A DNA stretch of 64,000 bases, taken from contig NZ_FOPV01000003.1 in the NCBI RefSeq assembly GCF_900113575.1, positions 1 through 64,000 of the forward strand, read 5' to 3'. The notes beneath the pieces are model-generated. The model saw only the letters and a list, made by a program, of their open reading frames with translations, made no database searches and was not told the origin of the DNA. The stretch comes from Nitrosospira sp. Nsp14. GTDB taxonomy: Bacteria > Pseudomonadota > Gammaproteobacteria > Burkholderiales > Nitrosomonadaceae. The position numbers and the translations under genes are program-made. Positions within the stretch are counted from its first letter, which is position 1, and the number at the start of each line of letters is the position of its first letter. Below, piece after piece: positions 23,775-30,183 of this stretch.

Positions 23775-24591
23775 TTCATTATTTTTCGTCGAAGCGCATG
23801 TCCAGCATATCCAGCAGTAAAACCTGCTCGGGTTTGTCGGCAACCGGAACACTCAAGCGGATCATTCTGAAGTACCGAAAGTATAGCAGTGGCACGAGTG
23901 CGGCGCGGTTGGGATGAGCATGCAATATCAAGAAAGCGTTCCATACCGTATGTAAAATTTGCACAGACGGGCATAAACGTCGGTCACAAACGTGAAACTC
24001 TCGTCGTAGTCATGCAAGTCCGAGCGTCACAATCTTTCAGGCGCGACCACTCAGAAAAGGTATACGAATCACTGAATCAGCCGCGGCTTAATCGGTTGGG
24101 GTCCGGCAAGGAATAGCTAGCTGTAAAATCTTACAGCTATTCATACGACTCAATCCGTTGTCTTATAACGCACTCCTTCACGTAAATCAATATTGGATGG
24201 CTGAACATTATTCGCACGCAAGGCGAAAGTAGCGACATCAGACGCTGAATTACCATTCGATTCGACCAGCCCGAACGCCGGGCCGGCGGCGGTCCTTCAG
24301 ATTATCGTTCTGTTAAGGTCGGCTCGTACTGCGCGACACCGAACATACAAAAGAAAAACGACTATTCATCAGTGCGTCAGCGCCAATCAAGTGAAGCCGA
24401 TTCCCGCCGTTAAAAGTTCAACCATCGGAACTGATCCGCTTGCGACGCCGCGCGGACAACCTTGCCGGGGACCGGGTCAAGCCGCCCCGGTAATCAGTTG
24501 TATGAGCCGATTCCCCTTAACGGAACATGGAACAAAACGAAGCAATTTCATAATTCACCAATTTCCATTAAAGTTACTTGAACTCATTCTG
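23775..24591. other. Long intergenic region with one hairpin
   Basis: About 815 bp without a convincing gene. A hairpin at 24111-24142 pairs GAATAG with CTATTC and CTGTAA with TTACAG, with a four-base bulge. An in-frame extension of the next gene back to 24391 has poor protein character. The promoter of the acyltransferase must lie here. Confidence 0.4.
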
Positions 24592-25374
24592 ATGAACGAC
24601 TTGGTGGCCGCTTTTAACGAATACTTTGAAGTCATCGATGCCAATTCGCCCGAATTGCTGCGCGATGTGTTCCGCGTTCGCTATCAAGTCCTGTGCGTTG
24701 AACAACGCGCACCGGGTTTTGACCCATCCCGCTATCCCGAAGAGATGGAAAGCGATGATTATGATCGTCACTCGTCCCATATACTGCTGGTGCATCGTCC
24801 CTCCGGGGCCTATGTCGGAACGTCCCGTTTGATCCTCCCCGATCCGCTCGACACGCACAAACCATTTCCCACCGAGCGGCATATGTTGCTCGATCCCGCT
24901 CTCATAGATATGAGCAAACTACCCCGGCAACGAGTAGGGGAAATATCGCGGCTGTTTGTTCTTCGCCAGTTCTGCCGAAGAAGCGAGGAGCTTGAGGGTC
25001 AGTCGGGATTGACCGACATTAAAAGCGCGGCTGTACAACACCGGCGCCGCTTCCCCCATCCAGTTCTCGCGCTTGCCGTCGGCATTATCCGTATGTCGGT
25101 CAAACACAACGTCAATCACTGGCTATCGGTAATGGAACCTGCTTTAAACAGATTACTCGGGCTTTACGGGTTACAACTCGATCCTGTCGGGCCCTTGACG
25201 GAGCATCACGGTAGACGCCGCCCTTACTACGTCAATCTGACCAGCATGCTGGATCGCATGCATAAAGATCACAACCAGATTTGGGAACTTGTTACTGATT
25301 ACGGCAGGGTCAGGCCGAAATATGCGGAGCACGTGCAGTCGATACCGGCAAGTAGCGTTCTAGCTGATCGCTGA
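24592..25374 (+). CDS. PEP-CTERM/exosortase-associated acyltransferase
   Basis: A 260-aa protein of the GNAT-related family that resembles acyl-homoserine-lactone synthases and is found with PEP-CTERM/exosortase loci (TIGR03694 type). Key stretches are LLRDVFRVRYQVLCVEQRAPGF near residue 23, YVGTSRLILPDP near 75, and VGEISRLFVLRQFCRR near 113. The family makes N-acyl amino acids or similar lipids. No exosortase or PEP-CTERM gene is in this window, so it is separated from its usual partners. I use the ATG at 24592; the frame runs on upstream to 24391 without family-like sequence. Confidence 0.75.
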   Translation: MNDLVAAFNEYFEVIDANSPELLRDVFRVRYQVLCVEQRAPGFDPSRYPEEMESDDYDRHSSHILLVHRPSGAYVGTSRLILPDPLDTHKPFPTERHMLLDPALIDMSKLPRQRVGEISRLFVLRQFCRRSEELEGQSGLTDIKSAAVQHRRRFPHPVLALAVGIIRMSVKHNVNHWLSVMEPALNRLLGLYGLQLDPVGPLTEHHGRRRPYYVNLTSMLDRMHKDHNQIWELVTDYGRVRPKYAEHVQSIPASSVLADR

Positions 25375-25519: not shown

Positions 25520-25969
25520 GTGACAATTAAAATAAAAATCCGGCGGCTCATCCTGTTCGTCTGTTTGCTGTTCAGCATGACGCCGGCGATAGCCATTGCT
25601 GGGGCAACCGAACCCTATGAGGTAATAACTCATCCGGGTATCAATGAAAAATCTCTTCCCAGAAGCACCTTGCGCGCTATTTTCGGGATGCGGCTGCATA
25701 CGTGGCCGGATGGCACTGGCATCAAAGTGTTCGTCATGCCCGACGAAGCACCCTTACATGCGGTTTTTTCCAAAGAAAAGCTGAATGTGTTTCCCTACCA
25801 GTTGCGTGCCGCTTGGGACCGGCTGGTATTTTCCGGCACGGGCCAGGCACCCGAAACCGTAACGTCGCCGGAAGAGATGCTGGCCAAGGTCGCCGGCACA
25901 CCTGGAGCAATCGGCTACTTAACCAAATCCCGGATGGACGGCAGAGTCAATGTACTCCAGATCAAATAA
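25520..25969 (+). CDS. Short periplasmic phosphate-binding-like protein
   Basis: A 149-aa protein with an N-terminal signal peptide (KIRRLILFVCLLFSMTPAIAIA, cleaved near 27). The rest matches one lobe of PstS-like binding proteins: LPRSTLRAIFGMRLHTWPDG near 47 and GTPGAIGYLTKSRMDG near 126. It is about half the usual length, as in small periplasmic PBP-like proteins found before outer-membrane proteins or sensors. The start is GTG. The next gene overlaps its end by 20 bp, so this gene, the porin and the GGDEF-EAL gene form one unit. Confidence 0.75.
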   Translation: MTIKIKIRRLILFVCLLFSMTPAIAIAGATEPYEVITHPGINEKSLPRSTLRAIFGMRLHTWPDGTGIKVFVMPDEAPLHAVFSKEKLNVFPYQLRAAWDRLVFSGTGQAPETVTSPEEMLAKVAGTPGAIGYLTKSRMDGRVNVLQIK

Positions 25970-27257
25970 CCCGGCTCGCCCCCACGTAAACTGGGCTATC
26001 AGATTGATGGTCTTGCCGGCTTTACTATTGGGAGCCCCTGCCCATGCTGACAAGCTGCCTGAACTGCCGAAGTTATCAGAAATAAGGCTGCCCAAGCTGC
26101 CCGAGATGCCAAAACTGCCGCACAACCTGCAAATACACGGTTTCGCGAGCCAGGGATGGCTGAAAAGCTCGGACAACAATAATGTGTTTGGTCCCAGTTC
26201 TTCCAGTAGCGGAAGCTTCGACTTCAGGGAGATCGGGTTGAACGCCTCGATGCGGCCCCTTACCAATCTGCAGTTTTCCGTCCAGGGACTTTCCCGAACG
26301 GCCGGAAACGGCAGCCCAGGCAATATCCGGCTGGATTATGGCTTTATCGATTACACATTTTCCAACCGCGAGAACAGCCAGCTGGGCATACGCTTGGGTA
26401 GAATGAAAAATCCGCTCGGTTTCTATAATGACACCCGGGACGTGCCCTTCACCAGGCCCAGCATCCTGTTGCCACAATCCATCTACTTCGACCGCACGCG
26501 CAAGCTGGCAATCGCTGCGGATGGGGTGCATTTATATGGGGAATACCGCTCCGATTACGGCGACGTTTCCTTCCAGGCGGGCGTGGTAAGGCCGCTGGTG
26601 CGAGGTGATGAGGCCGAGGCCGCCGTGTTTGGAGTGCTACTTCCCGGGCATCTGGCCCCTGAAATATCCTATGTCAGCCGTGTAAACTATGAACTCGAAG
26701 GGGGGCGGGTTCGTCTTGGCATAAGCGCAACCCAGCTGAACATGAGTTACTCCCCAGCCCCTGGGGTAACGCAAGACCTGCAGGCAGGGTCATTCCATTT
26801 CGTCCCCCTCGTCTTCTCCGCTCAATACAACGCCGAGCGCTGGAGCCTCACGTCGGAATATGCGATTCGCTACCTGGAAAACAAAAACCTTGCCCCGATA
26901 AAAGACCAGAGCTATGCCGGGGAGAGCTATTATTTCCAGGGTGTCTACCGCTTTACGCCGGAGTGGGAGGGAATTGTTCGTTACGATGCTTATTTCGCCG
27001 ATCGCGATGACCATAATGGAACGATATGGGCTGCCACTGACGCTGGGCGCAGGACGGGACGCCCAGCCCATAGCCGGTTCGCGAAGGATATCACCGTAGG
27101 TCTGCGCTGGAATATCACGTCGCAATTCATGCTTCGGGCCGAATATCACCATGTGAATGGCACCGGCTGGCTCTCGGCGCTTGATAATCATGATTCCAGC
27201 CACCCACCGGCTCAGCACTGGGATCTTTTCTCCATTCTTGGCTCCTACCGGTTCTAA
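25950..27257 (+). CDS. Outer-membrane porin-like protein
   Basis: A 435-aa protein with a signal peptide ending near residue 34 (LLLGAPAHA). A short proline segment repeats LPxLPK (KLPELPKLSEIRLPKLPEMP). Then comes a series of alternating beta strands with aromatic girdles, ending in the terminal Phe of outer-membrane beta-barrels (SILGSYRF). It is a probable passive channel or ligand receptor. It is translationally coupled to the binding-like protein before it and lies 10 bp before the GGDEF-EAL gene. The substrate cannot be told. Confidence 0.8.
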   Translation: MYSRSNNPARPHVNWAIRLMVLPALLLGAPAHADKLPELPKLSEIRLPKLPEMPKLPHNLQIHGFASQGWLKSSDNNNVFGPSSSSSGSFDFREIGLNASMRPLTNLQFSVQGLSRTAGNGSPGNIRLDYGFIDYTFSNRENSQLGIRLGRMKNPLGFYNDTRDVPFTRPSILLPQSIYFDRTRKLAIAADGVHLYGEYRSDYGDVSFQAGVVRPLVRGDEAEAAVFGVLLPGHLAPEISYVSRVNYELEGGRVRLGISATQLNMSYSPAPGVTQDLQAGSFHFVPLVFSAQYNAERWSLTSEYAIRYLENKNLAPIKDQSYAGESYYFQGVYRFTPEWEGIVRYDAYFADRDDHNGTIWAATDAGRRTGRPAHSRFAKDITVGLRWNITSQFMLRAEYHHVNGTGWLSALDNHDSSHPPAQHWDLFSILGSYRF

Positions 27258-27267
27258 CGAATACTCG

Positions 27268-30183
27268 ATGCGGAAGAATCTTCACAAGGGCCTGGTTCAG
27301 CTTGACGGTACTACCGGTCCCGCACGCCGGTTTCTGGGCCTGAAGTGGAAAGTGCTGTTGCTGAGCAGCCTGATCCTGATCGCTATCGTCGTTTCATTCA
27401 CCAGCATTACTTACGTGAGCTTAATGGATGATTTCGAGAGCCAGAGAGATGCGCAACATCAGCGTTATGCGAGTGAAGTCGAAGGCCTGATCGATCAGAT
27501 CGCAAATAACCTGCATCAGCTTGCCGAGCTGATCCCTTTTATGGAAGGGATGGGCATCGATCTGCTCAAAGGTAATGGGACAAGGATTACTGAAACATTC
27601 GACCCGCATTGGGCATTGCTGCAGCTTAACAAGGGTATAGAACTGGTGCGTTTTTACGATAATTCGCATCAGCTGCTGGCAAGCTGGGGTATTCTTGAAG
27701 CGGATACGCATGAAGGCCCGATGTTGGACTGGGTGCGCGATGTTAATGCGAGAGAACACCCGATCAGCCCGTTGCGCTGCAAAAAAAACTGCACCCAGTT
27801 CGCGGTAGCACCACTGCTGGTTGAAGGAAACAAGGTCGGCGTTGTTGTCATCGGCGCACCCCTGGTAGACGCGATTTTGGGGTTCAAGAATATTTCCGGG
27901 GCGGACATCGGGTTGTTGATTAAAGAACCAGGCGATGTAGCCCGCAGTAACGATACGAGAATCGCACAATGGAAAGTACGCGTTGCCGCTCTCACCAGCA
28001 GCGAAAAAATCCGGCCTATTCTCAATGCCGTGGCCGAGAAATACCCTGATTTCAGAAATCTTGAGCAAGGGGTGCAGGGTTTCTGGGACAATCGTTATCA
28101 GCAACTTAAACTGCTCCCTCTTGAGCGAATAGATCCGTCGGACAAGGCGCAGTTGATCGTTGTCACCGATACCACCTCTACTGTCCGCACCATTCAAAGC
28201 TCCACCCAGCAGAACATGATCATCGGTCTGGTTGGGCTCGTGCTTTCTGAGATTCTGCTATTTGTAATACTGACGAAACCCCTTTCCCGGCTCAAACACA
28301 TCGTATTTACGTTGCCGCTTTTAGCCCGCAGCAGCTTTCAGGATTTTCGTGCTTCACTGCGTTACGCCGGTCAGAAACAATGGCTGAAGGATGAAATCGA
28401 CATGCTCGATGAAACCGCCGTCGCCCTGTCTCATCAGCTTGAACAGCTGGAAGATCAGGTCGCGGACCGGACACGGATATTGGCGAGGAAAATGGAGGAG
28501 TTGAGCACGGAAAGGGATTTCATCAACAATCTGCTCGATATCGCGCAGGTGATCGTGATTACCCAAAACGCGAACGGCCAGATTCTCACGCTGAACGCGC
28601 ACGGTGAAACGCTTATCCAGTTCACCGAAAATGAACTTCAGGGGAGGCCCTTTATCGACATGCTGGCGCTGGAAAACGATTCGCAGGATCTGCCAGCGCG
28701 ACTTGAGGAAGTGCGTTCGGCGCGGCGGGAACAATTGCGCCATGAGGCGAATATTCTATGCAAGGACACATCCCTACGACATATTCTGTGGCTGCATTCA
28801 CGGTTGACGAGGCATGCTGCTGATGACCCGGCCATGTTATCGGTCGGTCTTGACATGACCGAACACAAGCGTACCCAAGGCAGACTTGCCTGGCTGGCCG
28901 ATCACGATCCGCTGACCGATCTGTTCAACCGCCGCCGCTTTCAGGAAGAGCTGGAACAGATGCTTAACCTTGCGGCCCGCTATAAACACTCTGGCGCGTT
29001 GCTGTTTTTTGATCTTGACCAGTTCAAGTATATCAACGATACCAGTGGCCATCAGGCAGGGGACGCCCTTCTGAAGATGGTTGCCCGTATGTTGCTGGGC
29101 AGCATTCGCAGCGTGGACATACTCGGGCGCCTGGGAGGCGATGAATTCGCGGTAATCCTGCCCCAAACGACGGCCGAGGGCGCAATAGAAGTGGCAAAAA
29201 ACGCCCTGGCCTGCCTTAACCAGGGGAGGATCATGGTGAACGGACGTACGCATACGGCATCGGCCAGCGTCGGCATCGCGCTTTTTCCCGAACATGGAAA
29301 CAATGTACATGACCTCTTGGCCGCGGCTGATCTCGCTATGTATCAGGCCAAGGAGGCCGGGCGCGGCAGCTGGCACCTGTTTTCAGATGAGGAAAAAACC
29401 CGGGAACGCATGCATACGCTGGTCTATTGGAAGGAAAAAATTGAACATGCACTCGCGCATGACCGGTTCCTGTTCTACTTTCAGCCCATCATGCATATTG
29501 CCGACAAAACGATTGATCATTACGAAGTGTTGCTGCGCATGCTCGACGATGATGGAACAATACTCGTTCCACATTTTTTCATACCCGCAGCAGAGCAGAC
29601 CGGCCTTATTCATGCCATTGACCACATGGTATTGAGGAAGGCCATCGCTCAGTCAGCGGAGGTCCGGCGCCGGGGGCATTGCATTCGCTTCTCCATCAAC
29701 TTGTCTGCTCATGCATTTCACGACCCTGAACTGTTGCCGATCCTGAAGGAAACGTTCGCCCGATACGACGCTGACCCCTCCACCTTTATGTTCGAGATCA
29801 CCGAGACAGCGGCGCTGGAAGACCTGTCCGCTGCCCGCACACTGATGGAGACGATCAAAATGCTCGGCTGCAGTTTTACGCTGGATGATTTTGGAGTCGG
29901 CTTTTCGTCCTTCTACTACATACGACAGCTACCAATCGATGTGGTAAAGATCGACGGCTCCTTTATCCGAAACCTCGCCGACAGTCCGGATGACCAGATT
30001 CTGGTCAAAGCATTATGTGAGGTAGCGAGAGGATTCGGGAAGAAAACAACTGCAGAGTTCGTAGAGACCGCAGCGACCCTCGCGGTATTGGAGAAAATGG
30101 GAATCGACTATGCTCAAGGTTTTCTGATCGGAACGCCTGCGCCCGCCCACGACTCGCCCTTCAAAGACGTCCTGGAAGCGTAA
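27268..30183 (+). CDS. Membrane GGDEF-EAL c-di-GMP protein with periplasmic sensor
   Basis: A 971-aa inner-membrane protein. TM1 is at about 27-51. A periplasmic sensor spans about 52-315 and contains a CKKNC cysteine pair. TM2 is at about 316-336, followed by a HAMP/coiled linker, a PAS domain near 425-530, GGDEF near 541-700 and EAL near 721-967. The cyclase motif GGDEF is intact (near 621) with an inhibitory-site RSVD just before it. The phosphodiesterase motifs are nearly complete (EVL in place of EAL, DDFGVGFSSF, NLSAH, KIDGSF). It can plausibly both make and degrade c-di-GMP under control of the periplasmic signal. I start at 27268; an upstream extension would read through the porin. 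Confidence 0.9.
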   Translation: MRKNLHKGLVQLDGTTGPARRFLGLKWKVLLLSSLILIAIVVSFTSITYVSLMDDFESQRDAQHQRYASEVEGLIDQIANNLHQLAELIPFMEGMGIDLLKGNGTRITETFDPHWALLQLNKGIELVRFYDNSHQLLASWGILEADTHEGPMLDWVRDVNAREHPISPLRCKKNCTQFAVAPLLVEGNKVGVVVIGAPLVDAILGFKNISGADIGLLIKEPGDVARSNDTRIAQWKVRVAALTSSEKIRPILNAVAEKYPDFRNLEQGVQGFWDNRYQQLKLLPLERIDPSDKAQLIVVTDTTSTVRTIQSSTQQNMIIGLVGLVLSEILLFVILTKPLSRLKHIVFTLPLLARSSFQDFRASLRYAGQKQWLKDEIDMLDETAVALSHQLEQLEDQVADRTRILARKMEELSTERDFINNLLDIAQVIVITQNANGQILTLNAHGETLIQFTENELQGRPFIDMLALENDSQDLPARLEEVRSARREQLRHEANILCKDTSLRHILWLHSRLTRHAADDPAMLSVGLDMTEHKRTQGRLAWLADHDPLTDLFNRRRFQEELEQMLNLAARYKHSGALLFFDLDQFKYINDTSGHQAGDALLKMVARMLLGSIRSVDILGRLGGDEFAVILPQTTAEGAIEVAKNALACLNQGRIMVNGRTHTASASVGIALFPEHGNNVHDLLAAADLAMYQAKEAGRGSWHLFSDEEKTRERMHTLVYWKEKIEHALAHDRFLFYFQPIMHIADKTIDHYEVLLRMLDDDGTILVPHFFIPAAEQTGLIHAIDHMVLRKAIAQSAEVRRRGHCIRFSINLSAHAFHDPELLPILKETFARYDADPSTFMFEITETAALEDLSAARTLMETIKMLGCSFTLDDFGVGFSSFYYIRQLPIDVVKIDGSFIRNLADSPDDQILVKALCEVARGFGKKTTAEFVETAATLAVLEKMGIDYAQGFLIGTPAPAHDSPFKDVLEA

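What the first reader, a model, noticed from the sequence alone, without database searches (positions are those of the whole stretch)
25520..30183. Binding-like protein, porin and GGDEF-EAL enzyme in one operon
A half-size PstS-like secreted protein overlaps an outer-membrane barrel gene, followed after 10 bp by a membrane c-di-GMP enzyme with a periplasmic sensor. The unit could be a complete surface-to-cytoplasm signalling route: an anion or nutrient enters by the porin, is sensed by the binding-like protein, and is passed to the sensor domain. Cyclase, inhibitory site and phosphodiesterase motifs all appear intact.
Basis: partly seen in the sequence, partly recalled or inferred. Interest (0 to 1): 0.65.

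Follow-up and report, generated by a model that had tools for sequence, protein, structure and literature searches.

The report
VpvABC-like barrel-to-c-di-GMP sensing operon
An ammonia-oxidising soil bacterium carries a conserved gene set that probably senses something at the outer membrane and relays it, through a small periplasmic protein, to an inner-membrane enzyme that makes or destroys the signal molecule c-di-GMP; it is a variant of a system known from the cholera bacterium, and its front end is also found beside chemotaxis receptors and histidine kinases.

Summary
In a Nitrosospira-type genome, a 149-aa exported half-size PstS-like protein (25520-25969) overlaps a porin-type barrel gene (25950-27257) by 20 bp; 10 bp later comes a dCache_3-PAS-GGDEF-EAL protein (27268-30183). 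The order is kept in all 45 Nitrosomonadaceae genomes with enough sequence to judge, with a PEP-CTERM/exosortase acyltransferase gene (24391-25374) as constant upstream neighbour. The closest known system is Vibrio cholerae VpvABC (porin, periplasmic binding protein, membrane cyclase), for which the same route had already been proposed. The idea is therefore not new, but this is a distinct variant: different gene order, bifunctional enzyme with dCache_3 sensor, acyltransferase partner. Across the class, 75 of 83 half-PBP genes have a barrel gene adjacent, and about half have a membrane transducer close by: c-di-GMP enzyme, chemoreceptor or hybrid histidine kinase. In one MAG the same sensor domain is fused to a histidine kinase. 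The barrel plus half-PBP thus looks like a portable sensory front end. The phosphate/anion part is not supported: the PstS SGT anion motif is absent at the aligned position in 46 of 47 relatives. Physical contact, ligand and direction of regulation remain untested.

The parts
24391..25374 (+). PEP-CTERM/exosortase-associated acyltransferase (GNAT fold); conserved first gene of the block, 145 bp before the half-PBP. The listed GTG start is the longest reading; the family match covers residues 73-307
   Evidence: TIGR03694 271.6 bits against cut-off 111.95; same-strand upstream neighbour in 45/45 family genomes with room
25520..25969 (+). half-size PstS-like exported protein (149 aa), VpvB-like
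   Evidence: PF12849 24.8 bits; profile of 47 relatives matches one lobe of PstS structures, best E 1.6e-12; signal peptide by inspection (KIKIRRLILFVCLLF...AIAIAGA); single copy in own genome
25814..25852 (+). WDRLVFSGTGQAP, the family signature W-x-[RK]-x2-F-[ST]-G-[KT]-G-x2-P of the half-PBP (residues 99-111); candidate ligand or docking loop
   Evidence: W99 and G106 47/47, P111 46/47, F104 43/47
25950..27257 (+). outer-membrane 16-strand porin-type barrel (435 aa), VpvA-like
   Evidence: PF07396 31 bits; low-confidence AF2 model with 16 strands matches DcaP, Omp32, OprO, OprP at E 1e-10 to 1e-8; C-terminal Phe
27268..30183 (+). membrane dCache_3-PAS-GGDEF-EAL c-di-GMP enzyme (971 aa)
   Evidence: Pfam hits; hydrophobic stretches 22-54 and 315-342 flank the sensor; catalytic motifs intact
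27451..28173 (+). periplasmic dCache_3 sensor domain (residues 62-302)
   Evidence: PF14827 79.1 bits
28528..28869 (+). PAS domain (residues 421-534)
   Evidence: PF08448 and PF00989 over cut-off
28897..29367 (+). GGDEF domain with I-site
29434..30138 (+). EAL domain with catalytic motifs intact

Best explanation
A VpvABC-type envelope signalling unit. The outer-membrane barrel and the exported half-PBP form a sensory front end that acts on the periplasmic dCache_3 domain of a bifunctional c-di-GMP enzyme and shifts its balance of synthesis and breakdown. I think the half-PBP most likely works as a docking or relay protein, or as a binder of a ligand other than phosphate, because it has one lobe only and lacks PstS's anion contacts. 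The neighbouring exosortase-associated acyltransferase suggests that the output concerns surface or exopolymer and biofilm functions. Shown here: gene order and its conservation, protein families, loss of the PstS anion motif, intact catalytic motifs, and reuse of the barrel + half-PBP pair with other transducers. Inferred: physical contact, signal flow, ligand, direction of regulation and output.
For: Order acylT, half-PBP, barrel, dCache_3-GGDEF-EAL in 45/45 family genomes with room; the same first three genes and sensor in a MAG labelled Deltaproteobacteria; the three-gene core also on a Halomonas replicon. In the class sample 75/83 half-PBPs have a same-strand barrel adjacent and 42/83 a transducer within 2.2 kb; transducer density is 0.166 per kb within 1.6 kb against 0.014 at 3-4.5 kb. 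Output swap with sensor kept: L042 dCache_3-PAS-HisKA-REC, sensor 35% identical. VpvABC described as porin + periplasmic binding protein + membrane cyclase acting as one module (PMC12456836).
Against: No interaction data; no complex could be predicted; models of the half-PBP and barrel are low confidence (pLDDT 58). VpvB's own sequence could not be fetched, so direct homology to it is untested. About half of the sampled barrel + half-PBP pairs have no recognisable transducer nearby. In the V. cholerae work VpvA and VpvB have weaker effects than VpvC.
Confidence: 0.6

Rival explanations
1. One reading: phosphate or another anion enters by the porin, is bound by the PstS-like protein and is handed to the sensor.
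For: PstS ancestry; Porin_O_P family hit; PstS-mediated phosphate taxis through the CtpL chemoreceptor in P. aeruginosa is a precedent (PMC4926252). The near clade carries R101-x3-S-G-T at another position, which might form a new anion loop.
Against: The position of PstS Arg135 is Q or L in 39/47 relatives and Arg in none of the 46 listed, and SGT is present at the aligned position in only 1/47. Only one lobe is present. The barrel matches DcaP and Omp32 as well as OprO/OprP.
Confidence: 0.12
2. The barrel and half-PBP form a nutrient-uptake or envelope pair that is merely co-transcribed with the enzyme, which regulates them; there is no signal relay.
For: Many barrel + half-PBP pairs have no transducer gene nearby; PMC12456836 also reports vpvAB pairs without vpvC.
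Against: Transducer enrichment is local (12-fold) and spans three output types; no ABC transporter was noticed beside the pairs that were read.
Confidence: 0.18
3. The half-PBP is a periplasmic repressor, like YfiR in YfiBNR: it holds the enzyme inactive until the barrel or an envelope stress removes it.
For: Same three-compartment logic (outer-membrane protein, small periplasmic protein, membrane cyclase), as in PMC2837407.
Against: No family match to YfiR or YfiB; the sign of the effect is unknown.
Confidence: 0.1

Closest known systems
Vibrio cholerae VpvABC (PMC12456836)
   Same: Operon of a porin, a periplasmic binding protein and a membrane c-di-GMP enzyme; proposed flow porin, binding protein, cyclase; vpvAB pair widespread in Gamma- and Betaproteobacteria
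   Different: Here the order is PBP-barrel-enzyme (not barrel-PBP-enzyme), the enzyme has EAL as well as GGDEF and a dCache_3 + PAS input, and an exosortase-type acyltransferase is attached; other copies are linked to chemoreceptors and histidine kinases
P. aeruginosa YfiBNR (PMC2837407)
   Same: Outer-membrane and small periplasmic proteins control a membrane cyclase
   Different: Unrelated protein families (no YfiR or YfiB match)
PstS-CtpL phosphate chemotaxis, P. aeruginosa (PMC4926252)
   Same: A PstS-type protein acts through a membrane receptor
   Different: Full-size phosphate-binding PstS, no dedicated barrel; here one lobe without the anion motif
Porin_O_P family (OprP/OprO)
   Same: Pfam family and 16-strand barrel
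   Different: Phosphate selectivity not shown; other porins match the model as well

Membership tests
VpvABC-type module | barrel/porin, small periplasmic binding protein and membrane cyclase in one tight gene cluster | tested here: met
   definition from PMC12456836
VpvABC-type module | gene order porin, binding protein, cyclase | tested here: not met
   the window has binding protein, porin, enzyme; the VpvABC order occurs in related copies L066, L140, L143
VpvABC-type module | sequence homology of the small protein to VpvB itself | not testable with these tools
   no V. cholerae chromosome or Vibrio genome handle could be obtained; Vibrio and Photobacterium half-PBPs of the same family were found with histidine kinases
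VpvABC-type module | module changes c-di-GMP and biofilm | not testable with these tools
   needs mutants
PstS phosphate-binding proteins | two lobes | tested here: not met
   profile matches one lobe only, chain residues about 77-187 of 252
PstS phosphate-binding proteins | R...SGT anion contacts | tested here: not met
   Arg position is mostly Q/L; SGT at the aligned position in 1/47
Porin_O_P barrels | Pfam PF07396 over cut-off | tested here: met
   31 bits against 20.9
Porin_O_P barrels | phosphate selectivity | not tested
   no electrophysiology; arginine ladder not examined
Bifunctional GGDEF-EAL enzymes | intact catalytic and I-site motifs | tested here: met
YfiBNR | YfiR-type periplasmic protein and OmpA-type lipoprotein | tested here: not met
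   no such Pfam or NCBIfam match
PEP-CTERM/exosortase acyltransferase | TIGR03694 over cut-off | tested here: met
   271.6 against 111.95 bits; exosortases on another contig, C8

The most novel reading that the evidence does not exclude
Barrel + half-PBP is a general, exchangeable trans-envelope sensing cassette that relays outer-membrane events to any of three classes of inner-membrane transducer (c-di-GMP enzymes, chemoreceptors, hybrid histidine kinases), with the half-PBP evolved from a phosphate-binding lobe into a protein relay that no longer binds phosphate.
Probability: 0.35. Interest if true: 0.8.

Novelty: new variant of a known kind. Interest (0 to 1): 0.5.

Why it matters
How events at the outer membrane reach inner-membrane sensors is known for few systems. 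If the pair is a portable front end, one mechanism would explain inputs to many orphan cyclases, chemoreceptors and kinases, and the unknown VpvABC signal could be sought in many hosts, including ammonia oxidisers, where this is one of 16 GGDEF genes.

Tried and rejected
The AF2 model of the half-PBP from 13 near relatives was poor (pLDDT 58.5) and its fold search inconclusive (best 1twy, a PstS-type protein, E 0.27); not used. The barrel model is also low in confidence and used only for barrel class. Attempts to reach a Vibrio genome for VpvB failed. Promoter scan was uninformative: fewer sites than in shuffles. Literature searches for half-PBP + porin + chemoreceptor operons found nothing relevant in the held library. 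YfiBNR and canonical PstS considered and rejected. In the half-PBP tree one row (L193) was extracted in a wrong frame and should be ignored.

Full report
Observation. The half-PBP (25520-25969) overlaps the barrel gene (25950-27257) by 20 bp, and the enzyme starts at 27268, 10 bp after the barrel stop. Pfam gives PBP_like_2 just under its cut-off, Porin_O_P over its cut-off, and dCache_3, PAS, GGDEF and EAL. I-site, A-site and EAL motifs are intact in the window protein; across 35 relatives most motifs are found in nearly all, and the last one (QGFL) in 25 by my pattern.

Where it comes from. The closest named relatives are Nitrosospira and Nitrosovibrio. The half-PBP occurs once in the window's genome and in 109 of 125 genomes of the family.

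Conservation. I read the surroundings of the half-PBP in 46 family genomes. In 45 the sequence is long enough, and all 45 have acyltransferase, half-PBP, barrel, sensor enzyme on one strand in this order; the other (G109) ends at the contig edge. Two further genomes (G015, G089) end at contig edges after keeping part of the block. One copy has a half-PBP in two frames (L055) and one an interrupted enzyme (L056).

The acyltransferase. The upstream gene is the exosortase-associated acyltransferase family TIGR03694. It belongs to the conserved block, and an acyltransferase lies on one side or the other in several distant loci, including after the enzyme in Halomonas. Exosortases are on another contig of the genome. 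This hints at a surface or exopolymer output; it is inference.

The wider family. A profile of the half-PBP finds copies in 77 of 276 genomes drawn across the class. Around 83 copies in 80 fetched loci, 75 have a same-strand barrel gene within 600 bp. These barrels form one homologous cluster, 67 of 70 ending in Phe. Transducers recognised by motif lie within 2.2 kb of 42 copies, and their density falls from 0.166 to 0.014 per kb away from the half-PBP. Pfam confirms c-di-GMP enzymes with dCache_3 or dCache_1, chemoreceptors, and hybrid histidine kinases. Annotated records show MCP-porin-PBP on a Pseudomonas aeruginosa plasmid and, in Massilia, a hypothetical protein of barrel size, PBP, MCP and DGC. 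The sample took mostly the best-scoring places, so the fractions are not unbiased; motif classes are approximate.

Output swap. L042, a MAG contig labelled Deltaproteobacteria, has acyltransferase, half-PBP, barrel and then dCache_3-PAS-PAS-HisKA-HATPase-REC. Its sensor half is 35% identical to the window's. In the half-PBP tree it sits inside the mostly c-di-GMP-linked clade. Input kept, output exchanged, is what a sensory front end predicts.

The small protein. A profile of 47 relatives matches PstS structures at E 1.6e-12, over one lobe. At the positions of PstS Arg135 and Ser139-Gly140-Thr141 the family has mostly Q/L and no SGT, which is present in 1 of 47. Instead W-x-[RK]-x2-F-[ST]-G-[KT]-G-x2-P is nearly invariant. 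So the canonical phosphate site is gone; a different ligand site or a protein-docking loop is possible. The PstS contact residues and their numbering are from general knowledge.

Known system. V. cholerae VpvABC is described as porin, periplasmic binding protein and membrane cyclase, with the signal thought to enter by VpvA and be sensed by VpvB and VpvC, and vpvAB is reported as a conserved pair in many Gamma- and Betaproteobacteria (PMC12456836). The window unit works like this by anatomy. It is not the same arrangement: order, EAL domain, dCache_3 sensor and acyltransferase differ, and homology to VpvB itself was not tested. The link of the pair to chemoreceptors and histidine kinases is not in the passages of that paper that I read.

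Verdict. A real, conserved signalling unit; new variant of a known kind; the route is plausible, the anion is not supported, and physical contact is untested.

Noticed in passing
L042:1194-6060: MAG labelled Deltaproteobacteria with the same block but the sensor fused to a hybrid histidine kinase instead of GGDEF-EAL.
   Followed up: partly
L066:862-4116 and L061:957-2649: Second, divergent barrel + half-PBP pair in some genomes of the family, in VpvABC order; in L066 followed by a PAS-GGDEF cyclase.
   Followed up: partly
L124:1529-7456: Tandem half-PBP-barrel-half-PBP-barrel followed by one GGDEF-EAL enzyme.
   Followed up: no
L197:3914-8318: Half-PBP with a 386-aa hypothetical protein (barrel-sized) next to type IV CRISPR genes (csf1-csf3) on an Alteromonas mediterranea plasmid.
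   Followed up: no
window 25950-26130: Barrel N-terminus carries a Pro/Leu repeat (LPKLPEMPKLP) whose length varies among Nitrosospira species and is absent in some.
   Followed up: no
L056:3488-5183 and L055:6892-7283: Interrupted enzyme gene in one family genome and a half-PBP split over two frames in another; may be decay or sequencing error.
   Followed up: no
L207:1180-4405: MCP-porin-half-PBP cluster on a large Pseudomonas aeruginosa plasmid.
   Followed up: no
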